The notes under the pieces were generated by a model. The model had not been told where the DNA came from, did no database searches, and saw nothing but the letters and a program-made list of their open reading frames with translations. Below are positions 5,535 to 54,838 of a stretch of 64,000 nucleotides of DNA, in pieces (position 1 is the first letter of the stretch; each line of letters starts with the position of its first letter). The stretch is from Euborellia annulipes (lineage: Eukaryota; Arthropoda; Insecta; Dermaptera; Anisolabididae), in contig JAKCPI010011637.1 in the NCBI GenBank assembly GCA_023213315.1, forward strand, positions 62,001 to 126,000. The letters run 5' to 3'. Position numbers and translations under genes: made by a program.

Positions 5535-5873
5535 ATGAGATCAATGACAGGAAATGACGGAAATGAAGGAGTAATGAATCTCTTCACCAATGAAACTCCC
5601 GATTCACAATGTTTCGGTCTAATTTTATTGGATATCATCATGAAAATATATTATATATTTTACCATAAACAAGTATAAAATTTTAACAAGTCTTCGAAAT
5701 ATATAATATATTTTCATATGACAACTCCCTAACACTTGATGATGGTCCAATAAAATTAGACTGAAACGTGAATTGGAAGTTCCATTGGTGAAGATTCTAT
5801 TCCTTCCTTGCTATCATCTCCTGTCATTGACCTCATCGTTAATCACAGCCATTTCCACATCCGAACTGGATGT
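5535..5873 (+). mobile_element. Ribozyme-type inverted-pair element (degenerate)
   Basis: Inverted arms about 5535-5665 and 5698-5835 each carry a relic of the hammerhead-like core. The right arm has TTGATGA, then GGTC...GAC, then GAAACGTG (5727-5755). The left arm, on the minus strand, has ATGATGA and GAAACAT. The right arm continues into a tail with TCACAGCCA (5843-5851). Flanks ATTAAAAT (5527-5534) and ATTAAAGT (5874-5881) are a possible 8-bp target duplication with one mismatch. Confidence 0.65.
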
Positions 5874-5933
5874 ATTAAAGTTAAAGAGAGGAAGAAAGCA
5901 AAAGTAAAGAACAAAATATAAAGACCTTATGTC

Positions 5934-6190
5934 CAGGGCCGTAGCCAGGGGGAGGGGACGCCCTGATTGTCATTTCATCCCTGAAATCTCGAAAAATTAT
6001 AAATAAAGAGAATTATAAAGAGAAAGACATGTAAAAAAAGACCAATAAAATTTTAAATACCATTAGAAAATATAAAAAATATTTTATATTTAAAATTTAT
6101 TTGGGAGAGGGGGAGGATTACTTCTCTTCTCGGATCATCCGAACCCCTCCCCCCACCCCTTTACCGAAAAGGTTTCTGGCTACGACCCTG
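5934..6190. mobile_element. hAT MITE, CAGGGCCGTAGCCAG family
   Basis: The left terminus CAGGGCCGTAGCCAGG pairs with the right terminus TTTCTGGCTACGACCCTG. The 8-bp flanks CTTATGTC and CTTATATA agree at six positions. The interior is AT-rich with G- and C-runs just inside the ends, as in the copy at 56878. It is non-coding. Confidence 0.75.
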
Positions 6191-6919
6191 CTTATATAAT
6201 TTATTTTCACTGGCAATCTTGAGGATAAGATGATGTAATTGTGTGCTTCAAATAAAAGCCTATAATATTAAACATATGATTGAACTCCTGATCCTCCCAA
6301 CGTCTTTTTTTTATTTTTCTCTTATTAATTTATAATGAAATTATTTATTATTGGCCTAGCTGTAGATAAAAGAAATTGTAGTGCACACTACTAGCGGTCC
6401 CAGGAGGAAGGCTCAGAGAGATCCGGACCCCCCCTCCCTCCTCTCCCATTGCTATTACTGTATATGAATATATTATACGAATTTATTCATATAATATTCT
6501 ATGAATGAGTCATTTGAATTTTCCAACTTTCGGAATTTCTCTCTTTCTTTCTGTTTAATTTACAGACTAATCCATTTGGATGATTTCTTTGATGATGGTG
6601 ATGATGATGATGATTATTTAGTATTTGCCCCATTTATTTATTTTTTTGTTAATATATTAATGCAATAATAGCATTGACCCGCATTGAAATGAATTAATTG
6701 TCGACCTTGCTCTACTCGCTTTCAATTAAAAAGTTTAAGCAGTTCTTTAACTTGGAGTAAATGAATAATAATTCTTTGAAATATATCTTTTATACTTGAT
6801 TATCAATTTTCAAATCAAGGTTTAATTCTTAATAATAATAGAGTAACGGTAATCATTTTTTTGAAGTGAAAACTTCTTCGGGCTCATTTTGTACAGTATT
6901 TTTGCTATATTGTCATTTC
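6191..6919. other. Unannotated stretch
   Basis: Contains a GATGAT microsatellite near 6588-6615 and a purine/pyrimidine-rich patch at about 6396-6450. Nothing else is supportable. Confidence 0.5.
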
Positions 6920-7081
6920 ATGCCCGGTTTCCCTGAATTTACTCGAGCGAGCAAAACTGACAGTTTAGAGCGCAACAGACAGCTGAACCTGCCGCTGGTG
7001 GGCCCTGTTCTGGCTCTCGTGTGTTTAGTCTTGTTACTTTTATTATTTATTATACTCTTTCATATAGTCTATTTGCAATAA
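6920..7081 (+). CDS. Possible small single-pass membrane protein or exon
   Basis: A 53-codon ATG frame whose first half is GC-rich relative to its surroundings and encodes a charged stretch (FPEFTRASKTDSLERNRQ). It is followed by a strongly hydrophobic stretch of about 24 residues (LVCLVLLLLLFIILFHIVYL) that would span a membrane. No homologue is recognised. It may be part of an exon; GTGGGC and GTGTGT inside could be donors. The base-composition shift is the main support, and chance cannot be excluded. Confidence 0.25.
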   Translation: MPGFPEFTRASKTDSLERNRQLNLPLVGPVLALVCLVLLLLLFIILFHIVYLQ

Positions 7082-7251
7082 TTTTCATTATGTTATTTAA
7101 TTTGAATGTACAGTATATACTTCTTAGTTAGACCTTGAGAGGACCGGGCTCCCTCAGAAGAAGAAATATTTTTAAATGTCCTTTTTTTCTTGAAAGATTT
7201 AGAAAATTGGTAAAGAAAAAAATAACAGCTAAAATTATTTCGTTTATTGAT

Positions 7252-7302
7252 CCTCTAGGCTGACGTTTCGGTCTTGGTCAAGATCATCTTCAAAGCTTGA
7301 GG
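7252..7302 (-). ncRNA. Hammerhead-like motif, partner arm
   Basis: This is the minus-strand counterpart of 7480-7530, with the same stem I (AGC..GAGG / CCTC..GCT) and GAAACGTC. The core reads TTGAAGA, so the invariant C of CTGANGA is lost and this arm is probably inactive. Confidence 0.6.
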
Positions 7303-7479
7303 GCTGTCAATATAGGCATACATTCAAATATTCAATCATACATGTAATGAACATAAAAATTTCAGTTGTATATTATTAATAATTATTAAAAAAGTAATAA
7401 AAAATTTCAGTTGTATATTAATAATATTCAATTGAAATTCTTATGTTTGAATAATAGATTGTATGCCTATATTGACAGC

Positions 7480-7530
7480 CCTCAAGCTCTGAAGAGGGTC
7501 TGGACCAAGACCGAAACGTCAGCCTAGAGG
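7480..7530 (+). ncRNA. Hammerhead ribozyme-like motif
   Basis: The core CTGAAGA (7489-7495) is followed by a 5-bp stem II, GGTCT/AGACC, then GAAAC and GTC (7513-7520). Stem I forms between AGC-cta-GAGG downstream and CCTC-aa-GCT upstream. One extra G separates the CTGAAGA core from stem II. Stem III would be only the palindrome ACGT, as in hammerheads known to act as dimers. Self-cleavage is inferred, not shown. Confidence 0.72.
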
Positions 7531-7622
7531 ACCAATAAATGAAATAATTTTAGCTGTTATTCTTTTCTTTACCAATTAACGATTATCCAGCTAGTGGCGA
7601 AAATACACACTTTCTTGGGGGG

Positions 7623-9417
7623 GAAAGATTTAGAGTTATAGCAATGGGCTTTTGGCCAAAACATTTAATATAATTAATTGTTTAATTAAGAATTTCTGGT
7701 TGAAGTTTAGAGTCCGAGCACCCTCAGATGCCCTGGAGGTCTAGCCCCCCCCCCCCCCCTGTCTGCGGCCCTGTATGTCACTTATCCTATAATTAATACT
7801 GAAATTAATATATTAAACTTCATTATTAATTACCACACCATCAAAGATCCAACACTGAAATTATTTTAAATAAAATTCGAAGGGAATTTGCTGTTGATGT
7901 TACAAGTTGGAAAAGAACAAGTACGAGAGCTGCAAATAAAGAAAGCCTTTCGATGCCAAAAGGCCCGTACTTGCTCTTTTCCAACTTATAGCCTATTAAA
8001 TAAAATATAAAGTTTTATTTATTTGGTTTATTGGAGAAGTAATTAACAAATTATGGGGCGGGGCTGACACTTTACTTTTTATTATTTTTACTATTTAAGC
8101 AAATGAGGAGGAATGACAATTTTAGATTTATAAGTTTTACTATTAGGGTTAGGGAGAAATTATTAAAGACTGGCATTTTCCTTCGTTCTAGTCTTTTCCA
8201 TCTCTTGACCCTTCATCCTTATTATTTAGCGTCAGGCTGTGTAACGGACCAGCTTCACCATCAGACTTATATTCTCATTTCAAATATTCTTTTATTACTT
8301 ATATAATTTATAAGCAGAGCAGAGTGAATAGATGAATAGACTGCCGATGAATTATGTTTTCTATTGATTCTTAATGTTAATCTGCAATGAATAGAATAAA
8401 TATTAAATACAATTAAATTACTCTTTTGCTATTTTTTGCAGTAGGTAATAAATAAAACCTCTATGTCAGGTTGGACCTGAATGACTTGTCCCTATTTTGG
8501 GGGAATTCCAACAGACACACTTTCCAATCTAGATTTTAATTATTTTTTTTTCTTTTTTCATAAGGGAAATTCCACCTCCTATAACTTTCATAAATTTTAT
8601 AATAAAGAATTGTTTCGGAGATTAGAGAACAGATGAATGAATGGACCATCATCATCTATCGGTGTATATGATGAGTGTGATGTGATGTGATTATCATCGT
8701 GATGAGAGGCAGAGGGTCTGCTCGGAGGCCTAATGGGACCTAATCGAGCCTGATTTGAACGTCCTGTTTGCAGAGAGCAAAGAGCAGCCTCTTTCTCTCT
8801 ATCTCTTGCTTGGACCAGAGTTTGCCTTTCATCTCTTGCTTCTTGGACATCGACCTTATTTTTCTTTCCTTCAAATTCAATTGGTTGGCTTAATTACATA
8901 ATTCTTTTAAGTCTTATCAACTATTTAAATTCTTTTCGGAGGGTATGTTTTCGCTTAACCGGATTCATATAAAGATAGTAAGGTCTAATAAGAAATTATA
9001 ACTTTTTTTCTCTGTGCAAAGTCGTAAAATGTACTAGAAATAATGGATAGGCGAAAAATTTCAAATAAACATAAATTCGATGTCGAGATTTTGTTGGAAA
9101 TACATATTTTGCCCTCTAAAAATTTGATTTTTTGACATGTGAGCCAAAGCCCTCCCCCCAATAAACATAATAAATCAGCCTACTGAAAGAAATTGAAAAG
9201 TAAAGAGAAAAATTAATTTAACTTTGTAAGAGAGTGGAATGAAAATAAAAAATTAGAACAAATTTCTATTTGAAGGGTTATTAAAATGTAATCTAGTAGA
9301 GAATAATGAATAATGATTGAAAGCTCTGAGTCAAAGTTTTCAATTTTTTGTTTAGATTGAATTTTTCCATATAGGCCTATGTACTAATTCTATTCTATTT
9401 TATTAAATTATTTTTAC
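7623..9417. other. Mostly unannotated stretch
   Basis: Holds a C-run ending in CTGTCTGCGGCCCTG at about 7741-7775, a likely isolated hAT terminus. There is also a hairpin at 7902-7989. The region 8640-8880 is GC-richer unique sequence without an ORF. Around 9060-9095 a fragment of the Helentron-like phrase AAATTCGATGTCGAGATTTT is seen. Confidence 0.45.
7902..7989. repeat. Hairpin with 22-bp arms
   Basis: ACAAGTTGGAAAAGAACAAG and its near-complement CTTGCTCTTTTCCAACTTAT lie about 40 nt apart and can fold into a stem. The function is unknown; it may be a small fold-back repeat. Confidence 0.55.
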
Positions 9418-12563: not shown

Positions 12564-12763
12564 ATGCCCGTGACCCGTGGCTGAGAGAGAAGATATTAGC
12601 TTCTCATGGCTGGGGTTGCGGGTTCGCTTCCCGTCCCAACCGAAAAAAATTTATTTCATTTTAAATTACTACAATTTATTGTTTTTGAGGTTATGGCTGT
12701 GATGTGATTATAGTGGAGAATTGGAGATATCAGCCAAATTGGAATGATCCAGGTTAATAAAAC

Positions 12764-12818
12764 TCCCAGGATAAGACGTTTCGGCCTGAATTTATTTGGC
12801 CATCTTCAGTTATCGGGA
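12764..12818 (-). ncRNA. Hammerhead ribozyme-like motif, partner arm
   Basis: The minus strand reads CTGAAGA, U, GGCC..GGCC, GAAAC, GTC. Stem I is TTATC-ct-GGGA with TCCC-GATAA, which is longer than in the partner arm. The cleavage triplet is the preferred GTC. Confidence 0.74.
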
Positions 12819-12934
12819 ATTATACACATAGTGCAAGTGCACATGTGATCAACCCAGGACTCGTCAATAATAAAATTTATTTGCTTCATACAAAATTCTA
12901 TGGTTCCTGTATCCAAGCTCAGAGATAAATCTCT

Positions 12935-12986
12935 CCCGATAACTGAAGATGGCCAAATAAATTCAGGCCGAAACGTTTTATCCTGG
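12935..12986 (+). ncRNA. Hammerhead ribozyme-like motif
   Basis: Core CTGAAGA (12943-12949), one U, stem II GGCC/GGCC, GAAAC (12970-12974), then GTT. Stem I pairs TTATC-ct-GG with CC-c-GATAA. All invariant core residues of the hammerhead consensus (CUGANGA, GAAA) are present. The extra U before stem II departs from the textbook motif. Confidence 0.72.
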
Positions 12987-13244
12987 CAGTTTTATTAACC
13001 TGAATAATCCCAATTTGGCTGATATCTCCAATTCTCTACTATTATTACTACAATTTATTTCAAATAAATAGGGTCTAAATGGCCTTAGATGCCGAAAAGA
13101 CCTTAAAAAAAACTTTTAAAATTTCCTGTATTAATTTGACCTTAGTTACTGAAAAAATAATTAACTACACTCCATCTTATCGAGAATACATGGGCAAAGC
13201 AAATTTGACTTTTATAAAATGAAATAAATTTTCCTCTGTGAGTT

Positions 13245-13535
13245 CAAATCTTATAGAGTATGAGTTTTTCACAGTTATTATCATTAATAAAAGAATTTGA
13301 TTTTCTGTTTAACTGTGGTTAAGGATTACAACGTTTCGGCCACTTCAGGTGACAATCTTTCACAGATGTAAAAGCCTTTGTAATCTTAACTGAATTGTAC
13401 CTGAAGAAGGCCACAGAATGAGTAGCCGAAACGTTGTAAACCTTACAAATAAACCACATTTAAACCGAAAATCAAATTCTTTAATTGATGATATCAACTG
13501 TGAAAAACCCATACTCTTATAATTTTTTCTGTACT
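13245..13535 (+). mobile_element. Ribozyme-type inverted-pair element
   Basis: Arms about 13251-13358 and 13384-13526 share TATGAGTTTTTCACAG, AATTTGATTTTC and the CAACGTTTCGGC core in opposite orientation. The right arm continues as a TTGACTTTAATTACTG tail. Target duplication is not clear. Confidence 0.68.
13398..13438 (+). ncRNA. Hammerhead-like motif
   Basis: Core CTGAAGA (13401-13407), A, stem II GGC/GCC with a long loop, GAAAC, GTT. Stem I is only GTA/TAC. In the partner arm stem II is deleted to CTGAAGTGGCC, so that copy is dead. Confidence 0.55.
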
Positions 13536-17145: not shown

Positions 17146-17389
17146 TCGGGTCGTACTAAGAAATTTTTGATAAAATTTTATTCCCTAATTTATTAATTAT
17201 CATCTAGTCACAGTGAGAAATATTCTCTTGCCTATATTGAGGAGTAGAGAGCTGACTTATGTAAGCTTATTATTACTTTTATTTAATTAATTCTGCTATC
17301 TTCCGGGCTGACGACAGAGGGGGTCAGAGAAGAGAAAAATTCCCGGGGGCCGGAGTAACCTTTTTTACTGTGATGGTGATGGAATCAGA

Positions 17390-17720
17390 AAAATAACAAG
17401 ACGTTTGCAGCCAAATTTTCTTTTCTTTATATTTCCACTCTCATGGCTGACGTTTTGGCCTGGGGTATAGGCCATCTTCAAAGCCGGCTGGCGATAATCA
17501 AATGTGTGGATATTTTTTAAAAACAGCGACAGCAATCAGCGTGTGGTTTGCTCACAGCAAAACGTAAAGAAGCATTTCTTGAAGACACTCGCTGATCATA
17601 CTTAAGACCACAAGCTGAATGTTTTCAGTGTTTTTAAAAATTATTCACATATTTGATTATTACCAGCCGGCCCTGGAGATGGCATAGAGCCCAGGCCAAG
17701 ACATCCAAACCGAAAAGAAA
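17390..17720 (-). mobile_element. Degenerate ribozyme-type inverted-pair element
   Basis: Two inverted arms share GCCGGC and a GATGGCC...CAGGCC block. The minus-strand core (17445-17487) reads TTGAAGA, U, GGCCT..AGGCC, AAAAC, GTC with stem I AGCC/GGCT. Loss of the invariant C and G makes it an inactive relic. The right arm is further decayed. A moderately GC-rich spacer separates the arms. Confidence 0.55.
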
Positions 17721-17767
17721 TTTTATCTGCTCACGTCTTGTTCTTCTTCTGACCCTTTTTAACCAAG

Positions 17768-18461: not shown

Positions 18462-18787
18462 AAAAAAATTATTTTTATTAAATCCCCTTTCATAAAAATA
18501 TGTACTAGTCAAAAAACATTTCAAATATAAACTTTTTTTGGATGGGGGGAAGGTGGTCGAATTAATTTACACCCCTAGGGAAGAGGGGGGGACCACTGTG
18601 CCTCTCGTCAACCCTGGACTTTATATTTATTAATGGATCCGGGAACCTAAGAATCTACTGGATATTGGATAATCTTTTCTTTTAATTTGCTTCAACAAAG
18701 AAGTAGGCTACATAAAATTCAAAAATAGGAAGAAATTTTTTTTTAATAATATTGCTCTCAGATGCAGAGGCAATTTAGGGATTTATT
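18462..18787. other. Unannotated stretch
   Basis: Contains a G-rich patch at about 18541-18600. No supportable gene or repeat. Confidence 0.45.
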
Positions 18788-19253
18788 ATGTATACATTAT
18801 ATTTCATTTGCAACAGGAGGAAGTTCCACACGCTTATTCCTCGGGGCCACCAATCTAAGGTTCCGCTGTTCTTGACATTGCTTCACTCGGGGCGGTACAG
18901 CTTTTCCTCTTTCTTGTCAGGCTCTCTTTCTATTAAAATTGCAACATATTCACGGAACACAAGAGAGGCATCGTCCCATCATCCCTATGCTGTTCAGATC
19001 ACGACTAACAGAACAAATCAATTTCATTCTTCCTTTGTCCCCATGACCTCCCGTGATTGGAACAAGCTCCCTGCGTCTATCTTCCGCAAAACCTACAATC
19101 TTCAGACTTTCAAGTCTAACCTCAACAGGCATCTACTCAGTTCCCGCAGTTGAGTTTCCCTTTTATGCTTCTCCTTTTGTTTTTATTTTCTTCCTGGCTG
19201 CATGTGACCACTGGTCATTATAGGTCTTCGGACCTTATGCACCCATTCCAAAA
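18788..19253 (+). pseudogene. LINE reverse-transcriptase ORF2 3' end, 5'-truncated
   Basis: A frame of 121 codons ends in the C-terminal signature of non-LTR retrotransposon polyproteins: HHPYAVQ, then SSFVPMTSRDWNKLPAS and LQTFKSNLNRHLL. This is the usual SF.P.t..WN.LP...FK..l pattern of CR1/L2/Jockey-like LINEs. The polymerase and endonuclease parts are absent, as in 5'-truncated copies. The 3' untranslated end has a small hairpin AGGTCTTCGGACCTT and finishes in an A-run at 19248. The same 3' tail recurs near 22375-22435. Confidence 0.8.
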
Positions 19254-20624: not shown

Positions 20625-20905
20625 TTATAATTGCGTGGAAAGGAGTCAGGCAAGGAAAATGAAAAACAAATTTATTCTGTCGACGTTTCAAGCGCCCGTC
20701 GTGCTCTTCCTCAGGACAGTATAAGTGTCAAATATCAACCGACTATCTTGTCACTACCATCTGTAATATTTGATACTTATACTGTCCCGAGGAAGAGCGC
20801 GACGGCGTCGAAACGTCGACAGAATAAATTTGTTTTTTATTTTCCTTGGCTGACTCCATTCCACACAACTATAGTTAATACTCACAGCCAGTATAATAAT
20901 TAATT
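20625..20905 (+). mobile_element. Non-autonomous Penelope-like ribozyme element with 11-bp target duplication
   Basis: Direct repeats ATACTGTGCAA (20614-20624 and 20906-20916) bracket 281 bp. Arms about 20635-20735 and 20753-20868 are inverted, sharing GTGGAAAGGAGTCAGGCAAG-type ends and CGACAGAATAAATTTG after the core. Only the right arm has the tail with CTCACAGCCA (20881-20890). No ORF. Confidence 0.85.
20672..20724 (-). ncRNA. Hammerhead ribozyme-like motif
   Basis: Minus strand: core CTGAGGA, a weak stem II, GAAAC, GTC. Stem I pairs GACAG with CTGTC, and an outer ATAA with TTAT. The plus-strand partner (20777-20825) keeps stem I but has CCGAGGA in place of CTGANGA and is likely dead. Confidence 0.62.
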
Positions 20906-20916
20906 ATACTGTGCAA

Positions 20917-22709: not shown

Positions 22710-22850
22710 AATTAAAACAATGAACTCAGTGGCTGTTTTTCTATAAACAGTGGAAGGAGCAGGAGCAGTCAAAAATAAAAAGTCTCCAATTTTTTACAAT
22801 CCAACGAGACGTTTCTGGTTAATTTTATTGACCCATCTTCAGTCTTTCAA
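22710..22850 (-). mobile_element. Solo ribozyme-type arm with tail
   Basis: A single minus-strand arm: hammerhead-like core, then GTCTCG, about 40 nt with TTTATTTTTGACTGC, and a tail containing ACAGCCA (plus-strand TGGCTGT, 22730-22736). No inverted partner is found. Confidence 0.55.
22804..22847 (-). ncRNA. Hammerhead ribozyme-like motif, close to canonical
   Basis: Minus strand: CTGAAGA, then stem II UGGgU/AaCCA in which the usual extra U pairs with an A just before GAAAC. This gives the textbook spacing CUGANGA-stem-GAAA. GTC follows. Stem I is short (TC-g-TT / AA-a-GA). It suggests the extra U of the other copies derives from a U-A pair. Confidence 0.65.
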
Positions 22851-23376
22851 AATTGTTAATGTTGAGCAGTTAGTTATGAAAAGATTCCGGAACTGAAATT
22901 TTTATCTATTTTCAATCTTAAATGATCATATTAATTAGAAATTCGATACTGTATTATTATTTGAAATGATTTTAATTAAAAGGAATTCATTAGAGAATAG
23001 GAAGGAACATGTTATTCATTCTGCTAATTAATTGAAATAATAATAAGTTAGAATGAAAGTGTTTTATACATTCAGAATATGCAACTCTTAAATGAGTATT
23101 TAAAATTTTTTTTAGGCCTTCGAGAAAGTGTTTGTGTAATTTAATGACCTTGCCAGATATGTTATGTTTCATCATTTAGTCTCTAAAACTATGACATACA
23201 GTAGAATAGCACTGTCTGCTTTTTTTGATTTTAGTTGTTTTAATAAAACTTTTTTATGTAATTATCATAATATCGTTATAAAAAACTTTATATTTTTGAG
23301 TTTTTTGTTTTTCTTCACGAAATATGAAGTTTCTTGGCCTGTTCCAACAATCTCTGAAAAACTTAGACAAACCCTT
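22851..23376. other. Unannotated stretch
   Basis: AT-rich, no supportable feature. Confidence 0.5.
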
Positions 23377-25429: not shown

Positions 25430-25565
25430 TCGACATGACTTTTTATTTTTCGATATACCTGATGATGATCAAATAAATTTGGACTGAAACGTCGAGAATT
25501 TTGGAGTTTCATTGTTAGAGAGACTAATTCTTCCTGGATGCCACCTCCTGTATAAATCACATTAT
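25430..25565 (+). mobile_element. Solo ribozyme-type arm
   Basis: A core at 25459-25493 (CTGATGA, U, a weak stem II, GAAAC, GTC) is followed by TTTCATTGTTAGAGAGAC, CTTCCTGG and CACCTCCTGT. These resemble the right arm and tail of the element at 5535-5873, so both probably belong to one subfamily. There is no inverted partner. Confidence 0.55.
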
Positions 25566-28011: not shown

Positions 28012-28108
28012 TTAATAACAATGAATAGAAGTATGGTGGCTGTGAATAAAGTTGATTGGAGAAAGGGCAGGTTCAGCAAATAAAAAGCCTTTATATGCTT
28101 CTCGACTC

Positions 28109-28151
28109 CGGAGACGTTTCGAGACAAATTTAATATCTCATCATCAGTCCG
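28109..28151 (-). ncRNA. Hammerhead ribozyme-like motif, left arm
   Basis: Identical in every core and stem position to 30168-30210, on the minus strand. It therefore faces outward from the left arm, towards the tail with TCACAGCCA. Confidence 0.78.
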
Positions 28152-28638
28152 ACTAAAAATGTACATACAAGAGTAATTAATTTTCGATATATAATAGAAG
28201 TTATAAAAAGACACATTGTGGCGAAAAAATATTACATCGAAATGTTGCATAAAGGTGGTCATTAATTATACAGTACATGTACATGTGAATTTATTATAAT
28301 GAAAACGTCTCGAAGTGCACATGACATAAAAATTTTCTCAATATACTCAAACCCGAAATGTCTTTCATTTTTATATAATTCTTATTCAAATAAAATTTTA
28401 TTTCGGGACCATCGAAAGGTTAATCCCTAGGTCAAGGCGTTTTAAAAACAAAGTGGAATTAGATATAATTTTCTTATTACAAATAAATTATAAAATATTT
28501 AAAGTTTTGACATTTCGGTAATTAATTTTTTGATTTTTTGAACAAAGGGCTCTAGCTCACAACTCACTGCGCATTGTTGGTAAAAAATTTTAATTCATTT
28601 TAAGATATTATTTTTCATTTTTTTTTATATTTTTATTT

Positions 28639-29103
28639 TTATCGCACGCTTGCCCCTGAGGTGAGAATGGCATCATAAACACAACCCAGGCTATCACAGT
28701 CAGTGTGGAAATTGATGGCTTTTTGCCCAAACACCTTTATATAGCATTTTTCGAGCGTTAGGCGTTTGACAGTGTTATTCTCTTTGGCGATCATCAGTGG
28801 ATTATCAAAATCAAATGAATGATCACACTCCAAACTGTGAAACGCCAACGCTGTTGATCGTTTTTAGTTTTTATGGTGTATTGGTGTTCTCCCCGACGGA
28901 TGGAAAATTTGCGGCCCGTCTGCCCCACGTAGTAGGAACCTGGATGTGGGCAATCCAAACACTTGAACGCATACACAACACCTGTTTGATTATCGAGACT
29001 GATTTTATCTTTTGTGTTGTACAGGCGCATCAACGTGTTATTGGATTTCGGAGCCAAAGAGATGTTAAAATCTTTGAATATTTTTTTAGTATTTTCTGTA
29101 ACT
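28639..29103 (-). pseudogene. Penelope-like GIY-YIG endonuclease domain, minus-strand arm, frameshifted
   Basis: The inverted copy of the domain at 29217-29681. It matches up to IKTK, where an A-run is one base shorter than in the plus-strand copy (plus-strand T-run at 28861-28865). This splits the frame into two overlapping pieces. The GVVY and YYVGQTGR motifs and the C-terminal CVYDAILTSGASVR are both still readable. Confidence 0.83.
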
Positions 29104-29105
29104 TG

Positions 29106-29681
29106 TCACTATTAAATAAAATTGTTTCACAATTTAAAAACAGAGCACAACAAACTAATGCAAAACCTAGTGACCAACCACCCCCGACATTTTATTCTGT
29201 TTCTTACATTCCAGGAGTTACAGAAAATACTAAAAAAATATTCAAAGATTTTAACATCTCTTTGGCTCCGAAATCCAATAACACGTTGATGCGCCTGTAC
29301 AACACAAAAGATAAAATCAGTCTCGATAATCAAACAGGTGTTGTGTATGCGTTCAAGTGTTTGGATTGCCCACATCCAGGTTCCTACTACGTGGGGCAGA
29401 CGGGCCGCAAATTTTCCATCCGTCGGGGAGAACACCAATACACCATAAAAACTAAAAAACGATCAACAGCGTTGGCGTTTCACAGTTTGGAGTGTGATCA
29501 TTCATTTGATTTTGATAATCCACTGATGATCGCCAAAGAGAATAACACTGTCAAACGCCTAACGCTCGAAAAATGCTATATAAAGGTGTTTGGGCAAAAA
29601 GCCATCAATTTCCACACTGACTGTGATAGCCTGGGTTGTGTTTATGATGCCATTCTCACCTCAGGGGCAAGCGTGCGATAA
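29106..29681 (+). pseudogene. Penelope-like GIY-YIG endonuclease domain, plus-strand arm
   Basis: The open frame to TAA at 29681 encodes the linker and endonuclease end of a Penelope-like polyprotein. It has SYIPGVTENTKK, then NTLMRLYNTKDK, then GVVY (about 29337) and YYVGQTGR (about 29385-29408), the GIY and YIG halves. R..EH follows. A C-x2-C pair lies between the halves and histidines downstream (HSLECDH), as in the zinc-binding CCHH form typical of this group. The end, ...CVYDAILTSGASVR, is intact. In life this domain nicks DNA for target-primed reverse transcription. The reverse transcriptase is missing, so the copy cannot act alone. The same frame stays open upstream (from 28797) only because it runs antisense through the other arm. 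Confidence 0.85.
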
Positions 29682-30167
29682 AAATAAAAATATAAAAAAA
29701 ATGAAAAATAATATCTTAAAATGAATTAAAATTTTTTACCAACAATGCGCAGTGAGTTGTGAGCTAGAGCCCTTTGTTCAAAAAATCAAAAAATTAATTA
29801 CCGAAATGTCAAAACTTTAAATATTTTATAATTTATTTGTAATAAGAAAATTATATCTAATTCCACTTTGTTTTTAAAACGCCTTGACCTAGGGATTAAC
29901 CTTTCGATGGTCCCGAAATAAAATTTTATTTGAATAAGAATTATATATAAATGAAAGACATTTCGGGTTTGAGTATATTGAGAAATTTTTTATGTCATGT
30001 GCACTTCGAGACGTTTTCATTATAATAAATTCACATGTACATGTACTGTATAATTAATGACCACCTTTATGCAACATTTCGATGTAATATTTTTTCGCCA
30101 CAATGTGTCTTTTTATAACTTCTATTATATATCGAAAATTAATTACTCTTGTATGTACATTTTTAGT

Positions 30168-30210
30168 CGGACTGATGATGAGATATTAAATTTGTCTCGA
30201 AACGTCTCCG
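30168..30210 (+). ncRNA. Hammerhead ribozyme-like motif of the Penelope-like element
   Basis: CGGA, core CTGATGA (30172-30178), U, stem II GAGAU..GUCUC, GAAAC (30199-30203), GTC (30204-30206), TCCG. Stem I is TCCG/CGGA. Penelope-like elements are known to carry hammerheads in their terminal repeats, which supports the call. Stem III is reduced to the self-complementary ACGT. Confidence 0.78.
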
Positions 30211-30281
30211 GAGTCGAGAAGCATATAAAGGCTTTTTATTTGCTGAACCTGCCCTTTCTCCAATCAAATTAATAACAATGA

Positions 30282-33078: not shown

Positions 33079-33093
33079 AACAACATAAATTAC

Positions 33094-33132
33094 AACGTTT
33101 CTGCCGCACACTGTTTTTGCAGCCGTCTTCAG
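33094..33132 (-). ncRNA. Hammerhead-like motif
   Basis: Minus strand: CTGAAGA, CG, stem II GCTGC/GCGGC (one wobble), A, GAAAC, GTT. Stem I is not convincing. Confidence 0.5.
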
Positions 33133-33245
33133 GTTATATAAAACAGTGTTTGTTCTTCAAAGTGAATTTATCACCTAATGATGTCTGCAGAAATAGTGCC
33201 AGAAACATTTTAATTTTTTGTTGTTAATTTATATTTTTGAAAAAC

Positions 33246-34630: not shown

Positions 34631-34634
34631 ATTT

Positions 34635-36381: not shown

Positions 36382-36442
36382 TTCTCCTTTTATTAATCTA
36401 ATCGTTCGACAGCCACTTTTCTCATCGACATGGTTTATAAAT

Positions 36443-36696
36443 CTTTCTTTGAGCTAGAGATTACTTGTCGATGTTGTTTGCAGATGGTACGCTGTAGGAG
36501 TGATTAAAAGACAAATTTTTTCTTTGGCTTTTATTCAGGGAAACTTAACTTGGCCAAGTTAAGTTTCCCTGAATAAAAGCCAAAGAAAAAATTTGTCTTT
36601 TAATCACTCCTACAGCGTACCATCTGCAAACAACATCGACAAGTAATCTCTAGCTCAAAGAAAGATACGATAATTCTTGTCAGTTTTCGGTTTAAA
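36443..36696 (+). mobile_element. Perfect palindromic element with 13-bp flanking repeat
   Basis: Positions 36441-36553 and 36554-36666 are perfect inverted copies with no spacer (113 bp each, centre TTGGCCAA). ATGGTTTATAAAT occurs at 36430-36442 and 36697-36709, consistent with a target duplication. After the right arm comes a tail of about 30 nt starting ACGATAATT, similar to the tail of the element at 7204. CTGAATAAAAG after the centre resembles the sequence after the ribozyme at 54708-54758, but no core is present. It is probably a ribozyme-type element that lost its centre, or in part an assembly artefact. Confidence 0.65.
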
Positions 36697-36894
36697 ATGG
36701 TTTATAAATTTGTGTCTCAATGGTCCAAGTTTCCTTGCTTAACAATCATATAATAATAAATAGTTTAAATTCGTGCTTCCTATACCTATATCCCTCAAAA
36801 TTACCTGCAAAACCAATTAGTGGAGAAAATAAGTATAATCAAATAGAAGAAGCCTGAAATCATTTTTACCGATCTATGACTAATATATCTACAG

Positions 36895-38522: not shown

Positions 38523-38845
38523 AGAGATAAGCTTTATTTCAATTATTATATAAACCAGGGCTGTTTCGCTAGACGTTTCAATCACATATAAGTCTATCTT
38601 CAGGGTCCAACCCTGTTAGAATATCATTCCTCTTTTGGTTATTATTGACTTTTTAAATATAAAAGATCTATTAATTTAACAATCAATTTGATTATAATGC
38701 CAAAATTAACTAAATGAGGATTAGTATATAGTATATTAGTATTCTAACAATAGCTTGGCCCTGAGAATGATCCAACGAAACATCGGTTCTGGCTTATACT
38801 TGTATAATAATTGAAATAAACCTAACCTGTTACTCTCTTCATTTC
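38523..38845 (+). mobile_element. Ribozyme-type inverted-pair element (diverged)
   Basis: Arms about 38523-38640 and 38740-38845 share inverted phrases (TTTATTTCAATTATTATA / TATAATAATTGAAATAAA; AGCCAGA/GGGCTG; TCTAACA.GG). The minus-strand core at 38572-38603 reads CTGAAGA..GAAACGTC with a poor stem II. The right arm has CTGAGAATGA..GAAACATC, a relic. Confidence 0.6.
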
Positions 38846-38866
38846 TTAATTTTCTACTTCATACTA

Positions 38867-41175: not shown

Positions 41176-41274
41176 AGAACAAATTACAATATACAACAAA
41201 TTACAAATAACAACTCTCAGGATAGGTGCAAAGGAAAAGAAAATCCGCAGCTAGTTGTATTTCATTATTTTATT

Positions 41275-41327
41275 CCCATCACGTTGACGTTTCGATCCCG
41301 GTTGGGATCATCCTCAGAACAGGTGGG
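41275..41327 (-). ncRNA. Hammerhead ribozyme-like motif with strong stem II
   Basis: Minus strand: CTGAGGA, U, stem II GATCCC-AACC-GGGATC (6 bp, 4-nt loop), GAAAC, GTC. Stem I is AAC-gt-GATGGG with CCCACC-t-GTT. It is the best-folded core in the window. Confidence 0.78.
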
Positions 41328-41346
41328 TGTGTACACATACATAACA

Positions 41347-41399
41347 CCCACCTGTTCTGAGGATGATCCCAACCGATATCGAAACGTCAACGTGGTGGG
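41347..41399 (+). ncRNA. Hammerhead ribozyme-like motif, right arm
   Basis: CCCACC-t-GTT, CTGAGGA (41357-41363), U, GAAAC (41381-41385), GTC, AAC-gt-GGTGGG. Stem I is perfect outside its small internal loop. Stem II is damaged in this arm (GATCCC facing GATATC). Confidence 0.7.
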
Positions 41400-41534
41400 A
41401 ATAAAATAATGAAATACAACTAGCTGCGTAATTTCTTCTCCTTTTCACATATCCTGATTGAACTACCAGCTATAAGCCCTACGTATCTTTTAACAACTCA
41501 ATTTATGTATATAAAATTTAAATATGCTCTTTGA

Positions 41535-41590
41535 ACGCTGAAGATGGCAGGGTTGATCCCAGCCGAAACGTTCCAATAAATAGTGTTTAT
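41535..41590 (+). ncRNA. Solo hammerhead-like motif
   Basis: CTGAAGA (41538-41544), U, stem II GGC-a-GGG..CCC-a-GCC, GAAAC (41565-41569), GTT, then AATAAA. Stem I is weak. It stands alone about 40 bases beyond the previous element and has no inverted partner. Confidence 0.58.
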
Positions 41591-44316: not shown

Positions 44317-44319
44317 TAA

Positions 44320-48470: not shown

Positions 48471-49260
48471 TCTTTTTAACAAAATAGCTTCTTAAACTCC
48501 GGTTAACTTAAACTAAGCAAATATACACATAATGTTTACAATAGTGAATTTATTAAAAAATTAAAACGTTTCACTTTATCTTAATTTGACTACCTTCACT
48601 TAATTATAATATTTATAAACAGAATTATTTTTATGGATAATTGATTAAGCAGAAAAAAAAACAAACAAATTAGATCGAAAAAGTATGAGAGAGGAGAGAG
48701 TGATAAAAATATAACGAAATAACAAAAGAATCTACCAAAAAATCTAAGATCTCTAGATTTATATTTCCTGATAAATAAGAGTCATGTAAATGCGTATATC
48801 ATGATAACCTAAATAGCAAAACGAAAAAAAAAACAACAAAATTATTGTAAAATTCCAAAAGATTTTCAACAATTTTACGATTACTTTCTCTTTTGAATGA
48901 ATCTATCACTCCAAGTGATAGTAAATCTATACTACTAGTTTATGATTAATTCATTTGTGACGTAATTCACGTATGTTTATTTCGGTTGTGACATAGCATT
49001 GCAAAGTGGCCCTTTGATTTTAAAGATAGAAACAAAATAAACCTCATCATCATCAAGGTTATTTTTACTTACTCTTCAAAGAAAAATAGGTAATATTAAG
49101 GACATTGTTTGCAATATTCATTCAATGCTCGAATATTAAATATATAATAACTAAATAAGAGAGTTCCTGTTTTAGAATTTCAATTTATTTTAGCTACAAG
49201 GAAAAATAAATTATTTATTTATTTCGAAAAATTAAATAAAAATTGATTTAAAAAATAGAG
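48471..49260. other. Unannotated AT-rich stretch
   Basis: No supportable feature. Confidence 0.5.
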
Positions 49261-49359: not shown

Positions 49360-49785
49360 TGAGTCAGTTGCTCTTGCCTTGGGGGGGGGGGGTAGGCAGA
49401 TTGAGGCCCCAAAGTCAACCCAAACCAACACACACCCGATTACACACAACCAACCCCCCTCCATTCCTCAGAGACAAACCCAAACACTCTGAAACATTTA
49501 CCAAACACACCACCAACACCTCGACTTGGGGAGTAGGCAGATTGAGGCCCCGTAGTTAAGCCAAACAGAACACAGACACAATTACACACAACAAATCGTC
49601 CTCCAGCTCTCAGAGACTAATCCATGCTTCTGAGCGATCCACCAAATTGACCTGGGGACCAGCAAGGCTGCGACCTCCTCCATTATTACCCCCTAACCCC
49701 CTTCTCTCTTGAAAATGGCTCCAAAAGGGGAGCCGAAAAGTCGCGTAAATCTCAACATCCCACGCGACCTAACCCGAGAAAATTT
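49360..49785. repeat. C-rich tandem repeat, about 140-bp units
   Basis: GGTAGGCAGATTGAGGCCCC starts a unit at about 49391. GAGTAGGCAGATTGAGGCCC starts a second at about 49531. GGGGACCAGCAAGGCTGCGA at about 49652 is a decayed third. CAAACC/ACACAA phrases recur within units. The strand is strongly C-rich and G-poor. It could be a satellite, a LINE end or a degenerate coding repeat; stops break all plus-strand frames after the first unit. Confidence 0.55.
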
Positions 49786-49789
49786 ATAT

Positions 49790-49940: not shown

Positions 49941-49963
49941 CGAAAATTATAAAATCTTATTAA

Positions 49964-50371
49964 CTCACTAAATGTATTTTGAAGTTTACTTGTATCTGGA
50001 TTCAGATGGATTGAAAGACAAAAAAAAATTATCTTTTACAAAAATTTTTTATTTTTCAGGATTTCTAACCATGACGACTGGTTTGCCCAATTTTCTCAGT
50101 TTCGGTCACCATATGTGACCATCATCAGGCCTTTTTCCTTATCACTCATGTATGCTCATATGCTCTTATTTTAACGATGGTGCACTTCTGGTGACCGAAA
50201 CTGAGAAAATCGCGCAAACCAGTCGCCATGGTTAGAATTCCTGAAAAATAAAAAATTTTTGTAAAAAATAATTTTTTATTGTAAGTCTTTCAATCCATCT
50301 GAATCCAGATACAAGTAAACTTCAAAATACATTTAGTGAGTTATATAATCTTGAACATCCTCAAAGTCAAA
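49964..50371 (+). mobile_element. Non-autonomous Penelope-like inverted-pair element with 13-bp target duplication
   Basis: AAAATCTTATTAA (49951-49963 and 50372-50384) brackets about 408 bp. Arms about 49964-50113 and 50188-50341 are inverted, sharing AAATGTATTTTGAAGTTTAC and CAATCCATCTGAATCC. The tail on the right is ATATAATCTTGAACATCC. The minus-strand core (50095-50128) reads CTGATGA, U, GGTCAC..GTGACC, GAAAC, but TGA replaces GTH, so cleavage is not expected. The right arm lacks the CTGANGA part. Confidence 0.8.
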
Positions 50372-50384
50372 AAAATCTTATTAA

Positions 50385-51320: not shown

Positions 51321-51325
51321 CTCGG

Positions 51326-51369: not shown

Positions 51370-51464
51370 TCCATTTAACTTTTATTGAATACATAATTCT
51401 TATTTTATTTATTTAAAAAAAAAAATTAAAATTTCTATAATTTATGCATTTTAAAAATTTATTT

Positions 51465-51625
51465 AAGATTTTTTTCGGCAATGGAGGCCATTTAAACCCC
51501 CTATCTAATTATTTCAATTTATTGGTAGGCAATTAAATTCAAATAAATTGTGCTTTAGACAGATTGCGAACTCGCGACCCTTGGTACAGAAGGCCAGTAC
51601 ACTATTCCCTTTACCAAGGACCGAG
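51465..51625 (-). mobile_element. SINE family 2, diverged
   Basis: On the minus strand: B-box-like GGTCGCGAGTTCGCAATC, AATTTATTTGAATTTAATTG, AAATGGCCTCCATTGCCG and AAAAAAATC in family order. The head A-box is decayed. Confidence 0.6.
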
Positions 51626-52970
51626 GGCAATTATGATTTTTAAATATCAATATTTTTGTAAATATTAAAAAAAAATATTTTATTTGTTTTATATTGAACG
51701 TAAATTTGAAGTCTAAAATCAATGTCATAATAATCATGATAAAAACTTGGAAGAGTTTTATTTATTAATCCTGAATTAATCATTTTCGACCTCAATATAA
51801 ATTTTTTTTTTTTTTTGTGGGGGGGGTAGGGGGTTACATTTTTCACGAACATATCCACTTACTCATTATATACTTATACTGGAAAGTAAAATTAAATAAT
51901 ACAATATTAACCACGTAGATAGGACTTTATTTTAAAAACTTGATTGTTGTTTTTTCAAGCAACGCCCAATGATTGAAAATTAACCAATCAATATATCGTT
52001 TCAGATAAGAACGATTTGCGAAATGAATTTGTGTTTGTTGTTGACTCGAACCAGGACTTTCCTCTTTCGCGGCGGAAGCAAAAATCCTGGTTCGAGCCCA
52101 AGGGCACGAGGCAAACTCATATTACCATTTCCAATTCAATTATCTCACAACAATACTCGTTTGGAAATAAATGTGACGCACTTGTAAGAATAATAATTTT
52201 TATTATATATCAGAACACAGAAGAATTTTTCGTCACACTTTATAAATTGGATCAAAGAACATTTTTATTTACGGAAGTAAATTCTAATCTGATTATACAA
52301 CAAAACTTATACTAAATTCAATATTATTAAATTCCTGGAAAAATTAAAGAAAATAATTGATTATTCCTTACCTATTAGGGTGATATAATACATATATAGG
52401 CTATAATAATCTGATGATATAACACAAACATTATTGTTATTTTTCCATATGAATTCAGGATTTTCGAGTTATTAATATTATAAAAAATTCGACCTAAAAA
52501 ATCATACAAATTTTTCTATTTTTTTAAATTAATAATTAGATACGATTCATAAACGCAACTTTCTCCCCACGCGTTTCCAGAAAGAGAGAGAGGGTCATCC
52601 TTTATCATTTTTTTTCTTGGCTTCAGGTCAAGTTCATTTCAAGTTTATTATGGTCTAATTTCTATGCGTGATGTCGCCAATTCTCCTTCTAAATTATAGA
52701 AATTAAATTCTATCTTGAGTACTTAGTTTCTAAAATATTGAATTTCTTTAGGTATTGATGTGAAAGCTTTCACAATTGTTAATCATTAATAAACAAATTA
52801 TATTCTCTGATAACCCTCCGAAAGTTCCTATTTAATTCCAATTAGAAAAGTCCATTAAAAAAAATTCCACTTGTTCTTTTGAATAGGCTCGAAATTTTGG
52901 CCCGAACCCTTACCTTACTCCATAGTTCAAATTATATTATACCTTTATTTTTTTATCTTTTCTGAGCCCT
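51626..52970. other. Mostly unannotated, with one hairpin
   Basis: CTCGAACCAGGA (52045-52056) and TCCTGGTTCGAG (52085-52096) form a perfect 12-bp hairpin with a GC-richer 28-nt loop; the right arm matches a tRNA B-box. G- and T-runs occur at 51800-51832. No gene is supported. Confidence 0.45.
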
Positions 52971-53152
52971 TGGCCCGGTACACACGCTACGCCATTAAAA
53001 GTGACGAGAGCCTTGAAATAATAATATATTGGTTCCAATTGCACAGTTCACACATTCTATTTTGGTTAGTTGGATGTGCACTGTGCATTTGGAACCAATA
53101 TTTTGCAATGCTAGCTAGCGACACTTGACAGTGCGTGTGCACCGGGTCTAAG
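52971..53152. mobile_element. Palindromic MITE, CCCGGTGCACACG ends
   Basis: Ends CTTGGCCCGGTACACACGC and GCGTGTGCACCGGGTCTAAG are imperfect inverted repeats. Inside, ATTGGTTCCAATTGCACAGT pairs with ACTGTGCATTTGGAACCAAT, so the whole 182 bp can fold. No clear target duplication. Confidence 0.7.
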
Positions 53153-53631
53153 TAAACTTTCGGATAACTGTGAATCTATTCAAACGACAATTATTAAATT
53201 ACAAAATTTTAAAATTTTTAAAAAGAAACAGACAATCCATAAACTAAAATTAAATTAAAAGTGAAACGTGTAAGATACAGTATGTGAAAAAATGACCTAC
53301 TAGAGCGGTCATTCTCTCCACTGACGTGTGGGGATAATCCATTTTCTAAAAGTGATTTAATTATATTTTTATATTTTTCTTGGAAATGTTCTACTCCAAG
53401 AAAGTACGAGTTAAACTAAATCCGATATTAAAATTCAACAAATGCCTCGATTCTGTCTTAAAAACTAGGCTATTTAAAATTCGGTATTTTGTGAGTATAT
53501 CAAGTGACCGGAGAAAAGTCGATTCCGGAACCATATCCTCCACTTGTTCAGACGGAGCCACAAGGGTCTTATGTGCTCGAGAGTGAACCCTGAGCTTAGG
53601 CAACCAAAAAATCTTAGTAATGTTTTAAAAG
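53153..53631. other. Unannotated stretch
   Basis: Partly GC-richer at about 53510-53600 but without a supportable exon. Confidence 0.42.
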
Positions 53632-53939
53632 TAGGAACCGACCGAATATTCGGTGTCGGCCAGGGTCCTGGTTTCGGCCATAGTTTCGGTTTCGGCCAAA
53701 AAGTAGCCGAAACCTGAGTCTGAAAAGATGGAATGAGACTCGCATGCAAAAAAAAAAGGTCAAATAAAAAATTTTCCTCAGGGCGGAAAAAAAATTTCAA
53801 AAAAAAAAAGGTAAAATGATATGAATTTTTTATAGGGAATACAAGTTTCGGTTTCGGTTACGGTTTCGGCCGAAACTAAGATTGAGGCCGAATATTCGGT
53901 TTCGGTTTCGGCTGAAAATCTTGTTTCGATCGGACCCTA
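53632..53939 (+). mobile_element. hAT MITE, TAGGGTCCGACCGAA family (308 bp)
   Basis: Same ends as 47886-48283 and a perfect 8-bp duplication TTTAAAAG (53624-53631, 53940-53947). It shares the CGGTTTCGG-rich ends, the GAGACTCGCATGCAAAAAAA block and AAAGGTAAAATGAT, with internal deletions relative to the longer copy. Confidence 0.9.
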
Positions 53940-54141
53940 TTTAAAAGTAACTTTTCCCATTCAGTTGCATTAAAAAGAGATGATCTTTCATTTTAAAAAT
54001 ATTGGTTAACTAAGCTCAAGGCTCCATTCTGGAACACATCAGGCACATAGTGCGTCCGATGTACCAAGCCACTGGTCACTTCTTGTTTTTGACTTTTTTG
54101 CTTATGCGATTGTTCATCTTATTTCGACTTAATTCGTTCAC
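53940..54141. other. Short unique gap
   Basis: Includes GC-richer CATCAGGCACATAGTGCGTC; no supportable feature. Confidence 0.4.
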
Positions 54142-54143
54142 TA

Positions 54144-54502
54144 TATGTGACCGTCCACATAAAAAGATACCAAATATTCATCGGGGTTAAAATTGAGTTT
54201 TTATGCTTTCTGTACAGAAGACATCCTGCTGAGCAAGCCGCTATTTTTAGAATTCATGGAAGATATGAATTTTTAAAAATTTTGTTTATGAAAAACCTAG
54301 TTTTGAGAAAAATCAGTTTAAAGTTTGTATTTTCGATTTTTTGATATAAAATACATCGATTCTGATGAATCGAATATTTCATCATATAAGATGAAGAACT
54401 AGAGAATCGGAATCGATTATTTTCAATTTTTTTAGTAAATCGCCTCTGCTTAAAATTTAGCCCAGTTAAGATTTGGTACTTTTTCATGTGGACGGTCACA
54501 TA
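54144..54502. mobile_element. Mariner-type MITE, copy 2
   Basis: Ends TATGTGACCGTCCACAT and ATGTGGACGGTCACATA flanked by TA on both sides (54142-54143, 54503-54504). It is the reverse-orientation homologue of 38867-39227, with shared CTTTCTGTACAGAA and AGATGAA blocks. Non-coding. Confidence 0.85.
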
Positions 54503-54615
54503 TAAGCTATCAATAATGCATTTTTGAATTACAATGTCCTTTCGAATACTAATGGCATCTGCAATCAGATTGCCGAAATATCTATTCATTAGTGTATGTA
54601 TGAAATAAAATTTTA

Positions 54616-54838
54616 GGAAGAATGAAACCAGCGTTGTCGAATACCTTTACACTTTTATTCAGGCAGACGTTTCGGTAACCATAACAAGGACACCTTAAAA
54701 AACTTTCATTGGCACTGAAGATTGCAACCGTTATGTTTACCGAAACGTCTGCCTGAATAAAAGTGTAAAGGTATTCGACAACGCTGGTTTCATTCTTCCC
54801 AACTCCAATCTCACATACCCAGCATACAACTTAATTTA
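54616..54838 (+). mobile_element. Non-autonomous Penelope-like ribozyme element with 13-bp target duplication
   Basis: AAATAAAATTTTA (54603-54615 and 54839-54851) brackets 223 bp. Arms about 54616-54681 and 54736-54801 are inverted copies (GGAAGAATGAAACCAGCG; TTTACACTTTTATTCAGGCA). The tail on the right reads CCAACTCCAATCTCACATAC. The left arm stops just upstream of GAAAC, so it lacks the CTGANGA half. Confidence 0.87.
54708..54758 (+). ncRNA. Hammerhead ribozyme-like motif
   Basis: ATT-GGCA, CTGAAGA (54715-54721), then a long loop ending TTACC, GAAAC (54742-54746), GTC, TGCC-tg-AAT. Stem I (TGCC..AAT / ATT..GGCA) is clear and stem II is weak. AATAAAAG follows directly. Confidence 0.66.

What the first reader, a model, noticed from the sequence alone, without database searches (positions are those of the whole stretch)
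5535..54838. A family of short, ORF-less ribozyme elements sharing one inverted-pair plan
At 5535, 7204, 12681, 13245, 20625, 32860, 38523, 41217, 49964 and 54616, two arms face outward with CTGANGA..GAAACGT cores. AATAAA lies soon after the core, and where ends are clear only one arm has a tail. Flanking direct repeats of 8-16 bp mark seven of these (and 36443). This looks like a non-autonomous system that depends on the Penelope-like element, with architecture conserved far more than sequence.
Basis: partly seen in the sequence, partly recalled or inferred. Interest (0 to 1): 0.88.

Follow-up and report, generated by a model that had tools for sequence, protein, structure and literature searches.

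The report
Twin-started hammerhead retroelement insertion pairs
This 64-kb stretch of DNA holds about a dozen short insertions, largely unrelated to each other in sequence, each made of two outward-facing copies of one sequence and most with a predicted self-cutting RNA (hammerhead) motif; they were likely made by Penelope-like jumping genes whose enzyme would start copying RNA on both cut strands of the target.

Summary
Cores predicted to fold as minimal type I hammerheads are supported by covariation. Of 13 inverted pairs examined, 8 have 9-16 bp target duplications in one geometry, against 4 of 156 swapped flanks. In all 8, exactly one arm has an extra 3' tail. One pair is a 5'-truncated Penelope-like element (PLE) encoding a GIY-YIG region; its tail holds TCACAGCC, an 8-mer present four times in 64 kb, each time in the tail of a pair. 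In 6 of 6 pairs with a cut site and clear duplication, arms end 50-69 and 88-102 nt after the predicted cut, close to start sites measured for the anole PLE (PMC11167929); two other pairs lie outside. A paralogous empty site supports one duplication. These are PLE-type insertions, mostly without PLE coding sequence. The architecture is known for PLEs. New here: short copies as the commonest form, from many sequences, the exactly-one-tail rule and the spacing. Not shown: transcription, cleavage, which PLE acted, genome-wide behaviour (genome search did not complete). AATAAA follows the core in 8 of 15 insertions only.

The parts
5535..5873 (.). Inverted pair, arms 5535-5640 (-) and 5737-5836 (+, hammerhead 5726-5779), right tail about 5837-5873 with TCACAGCC; no clear target duplication, so the tail's outer end is a guess
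7204..7622 (.). Inverted pair, hammerheads 7253-7303 (-) and 7479-7529 (+), right tail about 45 nt
7192..7203 (.). Target duplication GAAAGATTTAGA, second copy 7623-7634
12681..13043 (.). Inverted pair, hammerheads 12766-12819 (-) and 12933-12986 (+), LEFT tail 12681-12703 with TCACAGCC
12665..12680 (.). Target duplication ATTACTACAATTTATT, second copy 13044-13059; paralogous empty site in 32843-33062, two more divergent ones in 51448-51712 (-) and 62500-62678 (-)
13213..13532 (.). Inverted pair, right hammerhead 13391-13444 (+), left tail with TCACAG, weak target duplication (10 bp, 1 mismatch)
17368..17751 (.).
20625..20905 (.). Inverted pair, hammerheads 20673-20724 (-) and 20777-20826 (+, decayed), right tail with TCACAGCC; target duplication ATACTGTGCAA at 20614-20624 and 20906-20916
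22799..22852 (-). Single arm: hammerhead core without a detectable partner; ACAGCC 72 nt after the predicted cut
25449..25502 (+). Single arm: hammerhead core without a detectable partner
28025..30268 (.). Penelope-like element inserted as two 5'-truncated copies facing outward (arms 28046-29103 and 29216-30273, 99% alike), hammerheads 28104-28157 (-) and 30162-30215 (+), LEFT tail with TCACAGCC; target duplication TTAATAACAATGA at 28012-28024 and 30269-30281
29106..29672 (+). C-terminal piece of a PLE protein with the GIY-YIG endonuclease region; the left arm holds the same region on the minus strand (28648-29102)
33085..33142 (-). Hammerhead core of a doubtful pair (33022-33270) next to a repeat copy
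36430..36709 (.). Perfect 226-bp palindrome 36441-36666 with target duplication ATGGTTTATAAAT (36430-36442, 36697-36709) and right tail; no recognisable hammerhead; resembles the post-cut part of 20623
38523..38856 (.). Weak inverted pair, hammerhead 38563-38613 (-), decayed second core near 38761-38785 (+)
41208..41499 (.). Inverted pair 41217-41457, hammerheads 41277-41327 (-) and 41347-41397 (+), right tail 33 nt, target duplication TAACAACTC (41208-41216, 41491-41499)
41528..41581 (+). Single arm: hammerhead core just outside the previous insertion
49951..50384 (.). Inverted pair with CTGATGA..GAAACTGA variant core (no GAAACGT), target duplication AAAATCTTATTAA (49951-49963, 50372-50384), right tail about 28 nt
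54603..54850 (.). Inverted pair, right hammerhead 54705-54758 (+), left arm keeps only the 3' half of the core, right tail about 35-38 nt, target duplication AAATAAAATTTTA (54603-54615, 54838-54850)

Best explanation
Each clear pair is two outward-facing copies of one sequence (9 of 11 with a predicted hammerhead) that matches the insertion plan of Penelope-like retroelements, and was likely made when a PLE enzyme cut both strands of an AT-rich target and started reverse transcription on each cut end from one of two neighbouring start sites in the RNA. Shown here: outward pairs, target duplications, exactly one tail per pair in 8 of 8, a narrow spacing from the predicted cut to the two arm ends in 6 of 6 pairs with a cut site and clear duplication, and the same plan in a copy that still holds PLE endonuclease sequence. 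Inferred: target-primed reverse transcription on both strands; one arm starting at the proximal and the other at the distal site, perhaps by a protein dimer on one RNA; joining of the two cDNAs in the middle; and that most copies are short because the start sites would lie only about 90-100 nt downstream of the hammerhead in the RNA leader, so copying back to a nearby 5' end, or stopping early, gives short arms with no coding sequence. The hammerhead stands uncut in the inserted DNA and is predicted not to be needed for insertion.
For: Hammerhead fold in 16 cores: 78.5% of cells paired against 49.2% shuffled, 50 cells changed on both sides against 19.5, covariation 0.745 against 0.247, each reached by 0 of 500 shuffles; stem I pairs 4.2 of 6 in 17 own cores against 2.2 in swapped ones. 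Orientation: 8 of 14 core loci have an inverted partner on the 5' side scoring 90 or more (random 95th percentile 74); none has a 3' inverted partner above 36 or a direct one above the random 99th percentile. Target duplications 8 of 13 against 4 of 156, Fisher 4e-8. One tail in 8 of 8. Predicted cut to tail-less end 50-69 nt, to tailed end 88-102 nt, 6 of 6. TCACAGCC occurs 4 times on both strands, all 4 in tails, one the PLE's. 5 of 16 profile relatives of the PLE piece carry GIY-YIG PF01541. Published: the anole PLE cuts and extends both strands, starts internally at two sites that bound the tail, and inserts without hammerhead cleavage (PMC11167929). Empty site for 12704.
Against: No reverse transcriptase domain and no intact PLE was seen; the link rests on one truncated copy plus shared plan, tail motif and spacing. 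5 of 13 pairs lack a convincing target duplication. Two pairs fall outside the spacing: 49961 (133/167 nt, variant core) and 13246 (97/117, weak duplication); 17385 gives 47/81. Three core-bearing arms have no detectable partner. TCACAGCC is absent from 7 of 11 tails: two have TCACAG, three only CCAGC, 36441 and 49961 neither; the motif was chosen after seeing the tails. PMC11167929 reports no difference in start site between strands in vitro, which does not predict an exactly-one-tail rule. In one search the count of pairs with changes on both sides (9 of 9) is by itself not unusual (90 of 500 shuffles). A candidate empty site for 41217 was not convincing, and junction-spanning hits for 5535 and 17385 were not examined. 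Whether the short RNAs come from PLEs or from dedicated non-autonomous loci is open.
Confidence: 0.77

Rival explanations
1. Self-priming: one cDNA is primed at the target, folds back on itself and copies its own strand, giving an inverted pair from a single start.
For: PMC3846280 proposes self-priming for inverted PLE structures with palindromic centres (passages seen); 36441 is a perfect 226-bp palindrome centred on GGCC.
Against: A fold-back copy should repeat the tail and run into flanking DNA. Instead one arm lacks the tail and abuts the target duplication within 6 nt in 8 of 8, and its end lies 50-69 nt after the predicted cut in 6 of 6.
Confidence: 0.1
2. Dedicated non-autonomous elements (SINE-like or retrozyme-like) with their own short transcripts, mobilised by a PLE. 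This concerns the source of the RNA and is compatible with the twin-start insertion above.
For: PLE endonuclease sequence was found only at 28046-30273; stops shared by both arms close all three frames after the core in 2 of 9 pairs, 41217 and 49961; AATAAA after the core in 8 of 15.
Against: The insertions do not form one family: 4 of 105 comparisons reach the shuffle maximum. No tandem array of the retrozyme period (150-450 bp) is in the window.
Confidence: 0.35
3. Foldback or MITE-type DNA transposons that happen to carry hammerhead-like cores.
For: Inverted structure, short length, target duplications.
Against: Duplication length varies from 9 to 16 bp, arms are not shared between copies, and one end has an unpaired tail at a narrow distance from the core.
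Confidence: 0.03

Closest known systems
Penelope-like elements with inverted pseudo-LTRs and a one-sided tail (Adineta vaga Penelope families, PMC3846280; anole Poseidon PAc, PMC11167929)
   Same: Head-to-head pair, a roughly 30-40 bp tail at one arm, target duplications of about 8-10 bp (9-16 here), minimal hammerhead upstream of the RNA start sites, 5' truncation, AT-rich targets.
   Different: Here 12 of 13 pairs show no PLE endonuclease sequence and are short, the sources are many unrelated sequences, and the tail is exactly one per pair in 8 of 8, where the papers call it optional.
Animal non-LTR retrozymes (PMC7229834)
   Same: Short non-coding elements with type I hammerheads, suspected PLE help.
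   Different: Retrozymes are direct tandem repeats with canonical hammerheads and circular RNAs; here pairs are inverted, the sequence leaves at most 2 bp and no loop for stem III, and no tandem array of that period is present.
Dispersed minimal type I hammerheads of animal genomes (reviewed in PMC7761336)
   Same: Minimal cores lacking helix III in non-coding DNA.
   Different: The review reports most as dispersed motifs and calls the role of the minimal hammerheads in PLEs a mystery; here 12 of 17 exact cores lie in a clear insertion pair, 2 in weak pairs and 3 alone.

Membership tests
Penelope-like element insertions | Inverted arms with 3' ends outward | tested here: met
   clear in 11 of 13 pairs examined, weak in 2
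Penelope-like element insertions | Short target duplication | tested here: met
   8 of 13 pairs, 4 of 156 swapped flanks
Penelope-like element insertions | 30-40 nt tail at one arm | tested here: met
   8 of 8 pairs with a clear duplication; measured differences 26-44 nt in 6
Penelope-like element insertions | Encodes PLE reverse transcriptase and GIY-YIG endonuclease | tested here: not met
   Endonuclease-end sequence only in the 28046-30273 pair (tblastn with 16 relatives); no RT query was available, so RT was not tested; the short pairs show none of it
Minimal type I hammerhead ribozyme | CUGANGA / GAAA core, stems I and II, near-absent stem III | tested here: met
   Rfam models find none
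Minimal type I hammerhead ribozyme | Self-cleavage | not testable with these tools
   no RNA data
Animal retrozyme | Direct tandem repeats of 150-450 bp | tested here: not met
   Longest tandem period in the window is 84 bp, at 357-760; no direct partner within 900 nt above the random 99th percentile
Animal retrozyme | Circular RNA intermediate | not testable with these tools
   no RNA data
MITE / foldback DNA transposon | Fixed-length target duplication and shared terminal inverted repeats | tested here: not met
   Duplications of 9, 11, 12, 13 and 16 bp; arms largely unrelated between copies

The most novel reading that the evidence does not exclude
PLEs integrate by a coupled twin start: an enzyme dimer on one RNA uses the proximal start site for one target strand and the distal site for the other, so an insertion is born as an inverted pair with exactly one tail; the thousands of scattered minimal hammerheads in animal genomes are mostly the scars of this reaction, copied from RNA leaders of many PLE families, and the hammerhead-to-start-site spacing is a conserved signal the enzyme reads.
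Probability: 0.35. Interest if true: 0.78.

Novelty: new variant of a known kind. Interest (0 to 1): 0.6.

Why it matters
Little is known about how PLEs transpose (so stated in the abstract of PMC11167929). An exactly-one-tail rule and a narrow spacing between hammerhead and arm ends constrain the mechanism and can be tested in any genome by counting. It also offers a concrete answer to what the dispersed minimal hammerheads in animal non-coding DNA are; a 2020 review reports them as dispersed motifs and calls the role of minimal hammerheads in PLEs a mystery (PMC7761336, passages seen).

Tried and rejected
Rfam at gathering score and at E up to 10 gave no hammerhead; I take the microRNA matches as effects of the palindromes. 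The model of the GIY-YIG piece was unusable (pLDDT 36), so no fold search was made; the PDB sequence search gave nothing meaningful. Pfam and NCBIfam gave no match for the piece itself; its identity rests on profile relatives. A scan of viral contigs for the PLE protein confirmed no relative. A hammerhead pattern there found 13 viral contigs; 12 could be tested for an inverted partner and none had one, one of them (L007) with under 200 nt of upstream sequence; used only as a contrast. Reading frames: an ORF start overlapping the hammerhead, as in the anole PLE, was considered; frame results are mixed. Arm divergence against duplication divergence was considered as a test of one RNA or two and dropped, because duplications were selected to be near-perfect. 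The one-tail probability (0.004) is post hoc, and the geometry was chosen; the swapped-flank control used the same geometry. One search used 16 insertions for the AATAAA test; the right number is 15. The 16 cores of A1 include both arms of three insertions, so relatedness is not fully removed. The random loci include the window's own palindromes, so its 99th percentile for inverted partners is 170, reached by 2 of the 14 cores.
Full report
What is there. The window (GC about 31%) is rich in the two halves of a hammerhead core: 41 CTGANGA against 17 expected and 29 GAAACGT against 6 expected. Seventeen cores of the form [C/T]TGANGA..GAAACGT were found by pattern. In them stem I, which the pattern does not ask for, pairs 4.2 of 6 positions against 2.2 when halves are swapped between cores; stem II pairs 4.0 of 5 against 2.4 shuffled. 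An alignment of 16 cores gives 78.5% paired cells against 49.2% shuffled, 50 cells changed on both sides against 19.5, and a covariation score of 0.745 against 0.247 shuffled and at most 0.198 when slid; 0 of 500 shuffles reached these. The number of pairs with any change on both sides (9 of 9) was reached by 90 of 500 shuffles and says little alone. GAAACGT leaves at most two base pairs and no loop for stem III, the minimal type reported for PLEs (PMC7761336, PMC6155905, passages seen); cleavage would then probably need a dimer. Rfam has no match.

Pairs. Self-alignment gave imperfect palindromes at most of the listed places. Thirteen pairs were examined: 5535, 7205, 12704, 13246, 17385, 20623, 28046, 33027, 36441, 38523, 41217, 49961, 54613. 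Eleven are clear; 33027 and 38523 are weak. Nine of the eleven have a model hit better than E 0.001 in at least one arm; 36441 has none and 49961 only E 0.47. 17385 was noticed because the core model, built without it, scored there (29.5 bits; pair). Partners lie on the 5' side in inverted orientation: 8 of 14 core loci score 90 or more there (random 95th percentile 74); the best 3' inverted score is 36, and no direct partner exceeds the random 99th percentile (one, at 12704, exceeds the 95th). Single arms without a detectable partner are at 22815, 25486 and 41565.

Target duplications and tails. With one arm required to abut the duplication within 6 nt and up to 50 nt allowed on the other side, 8 of 13 pairs score 9 or more against 4 of 156 swapped flanks (Fisher 4e-8). 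All 8 have exactly one tail: right in 7205, 20623, 36441, 41217, 49961 and 54613, left in 12704 and 28046. A two-tailed or no-tail pair would have appeared as flush on both sides; none did. If both strands chose between the two starts independently, 8 of 8 one-tailed has probability at most 0.004; this test was thought of after seeing the data. For 12704 a repeat copy at 32843-33062 (76% over 222 nt) runs through the insertion point with a single copy of the duplicated stretch; two more divergent copies also run through it. A candidate for 41217 aligned too loosely to count; junction-spanning hits for 5535 and 17385 were not examined.

The spacing. In the six pairs with a predicted cut site and a clear duplication, the tail-less arm ends 50-69 nt after the predicted cut and the tailed arm 88-102 nt after it, a difference of 26-44 nt. 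Outside this range are 49961 (133 and 167, counted from its variant core) and 13246 (97 and 117, weak duplication); 17385 gives 47 and 81 (weak duplication). TCACAG, ACAGCC or CCAGC starts 65-78 nt after the predicted cut in 9 of 13 arms listed; in 13246 TCACAG is at 89, 25486 has only TCACA at 64, and 41565 and 49961 have none there. CCAGC is common in the window (33 places). TCACAGCC occurs four times and all four are in tails: 5535, 12704, 20623 and the PLE at 28046; three of these four have a clear duplication. TCACAG is in 6 of 11 tails, reached by none of 5000 random draws. The motifs were picked after seeing the tails.

The Penelope-like copy. 28046-30273 is two 5'-truncated copies facing outward, 99% alike, with the same kind of hammerhead, tail and target duplication. 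It encodes the C-terminal GIY-YIG region: one fragment 54% identical and, by profile, 16 proteins, 5 with PF01541 and 6 with PF26215, the two named ones from an ant and a mosquito. tblastn of these 16 against the window hits both arms of this pair and nothing else below E 0.05. The host may therefore be an arthropod; it was not identified.

Mechanism. For the anole PLE it has been shown in vitro that the protein cuts and extends both strands, that reverse transcription starts inside the RNA at two neighbouring sites, that the stretch between them is the genomic tail, that the hammerhead cut lies 26 nt downstream of the start codon and the main start 111-118 nt into the ORF, and that hammerhead mutants still insert (PMC11167929; parts 1 and 2 of 4 read). 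By my arithmetic the main start is then about 82-92 nt after the cut, close to the 88-102 nt seen here. Two primed strands would give the outward pair; the two starts would give the tail. That each pair uses both starts once is the new inference. Self-priming, proposed in PMC3846280 (passages seen), should copy the tail as well and is disfavoured.

Why so short. In 9 of 10 pairs with cores the paired arms reach only 7-112 nt upstream of GAAAC; in the PLE they reach 983. Copying the leader of a transcript that begins in the pseudo-LTR would give this without any dedicated element, and a structured hammerhead may stop the enzyme. A dedicated non-autonomous RNA is the main rival. Stops shared by both arms close all frames after the core in 2 of 9 pairs, so at least those sources probably did not read a coding sequence through this stretch.

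AATAAA. It follows the core within 60 nt in 8 of 15 core-bearing insertions (null 0.162; p 0.001). In 5535, 12704, 22815 and 25486 it lies inside the core, in the presumed stem II loop, and in the PLE ATTAAA lies there. Its role is unknown; as a polyadenylation signal it would probably end the RNA near or before the start sites.

Relation to print. Inverted pseudo-LTRs, tails and target duplications are known for PLEs, and minimal hammerheads are known in them. Nine searches of the held library (listings seen, some capped) showed no paper on short ORF-less inverted hammerhead pairs as a class or on an exactly-one-tail rule. The library does not hold three papers that bear closely on it, so this is weak evidence of novelty.

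Noticed in passing
L001-L013 (IMG/VR contigs): Thirteen viral contigs carry CTGATGATGG..CCGAAACGTC cores, several followed by a sequence that could close stem III with a TTCG loop (by eye); no inverted partner in 12 tested, no Rfam match in nine scanned.
   Followed up: partly
32843-33062, 51448-51712, 62500-62678 and around 12600-13100: A repeat with a tRNA-like box (GGGTTCGCTTCCCG), probably a SINE by eye, into which the 12704 pair inserted.
   Followed up: partly
17771, 23948, 24679, 39751, 55787: A roughly 90-bp palindromic repeat family, MITE-like by eye, with AATCTGGTGTGAC-like ends.
   Followed up: no
43219-44353: A large imperfect palindrome (76%) without a recognised outward hammerhead or clear target duplication.
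   Followed up: no
357-760: Tandem 84-bp repeats that look like C2H2 zinc fingers by eye.
   Followed up: no
48556-48609 (-), 49699-49751 (+): Weak model hits (E 0.002 and 0.03) without a clear inverted partner.
   Followed up: partly
18779-19153: Open frame resembling the C-terminus of a LINE polymerase by eye (recalled); no Pfam match.
   Followed up: no
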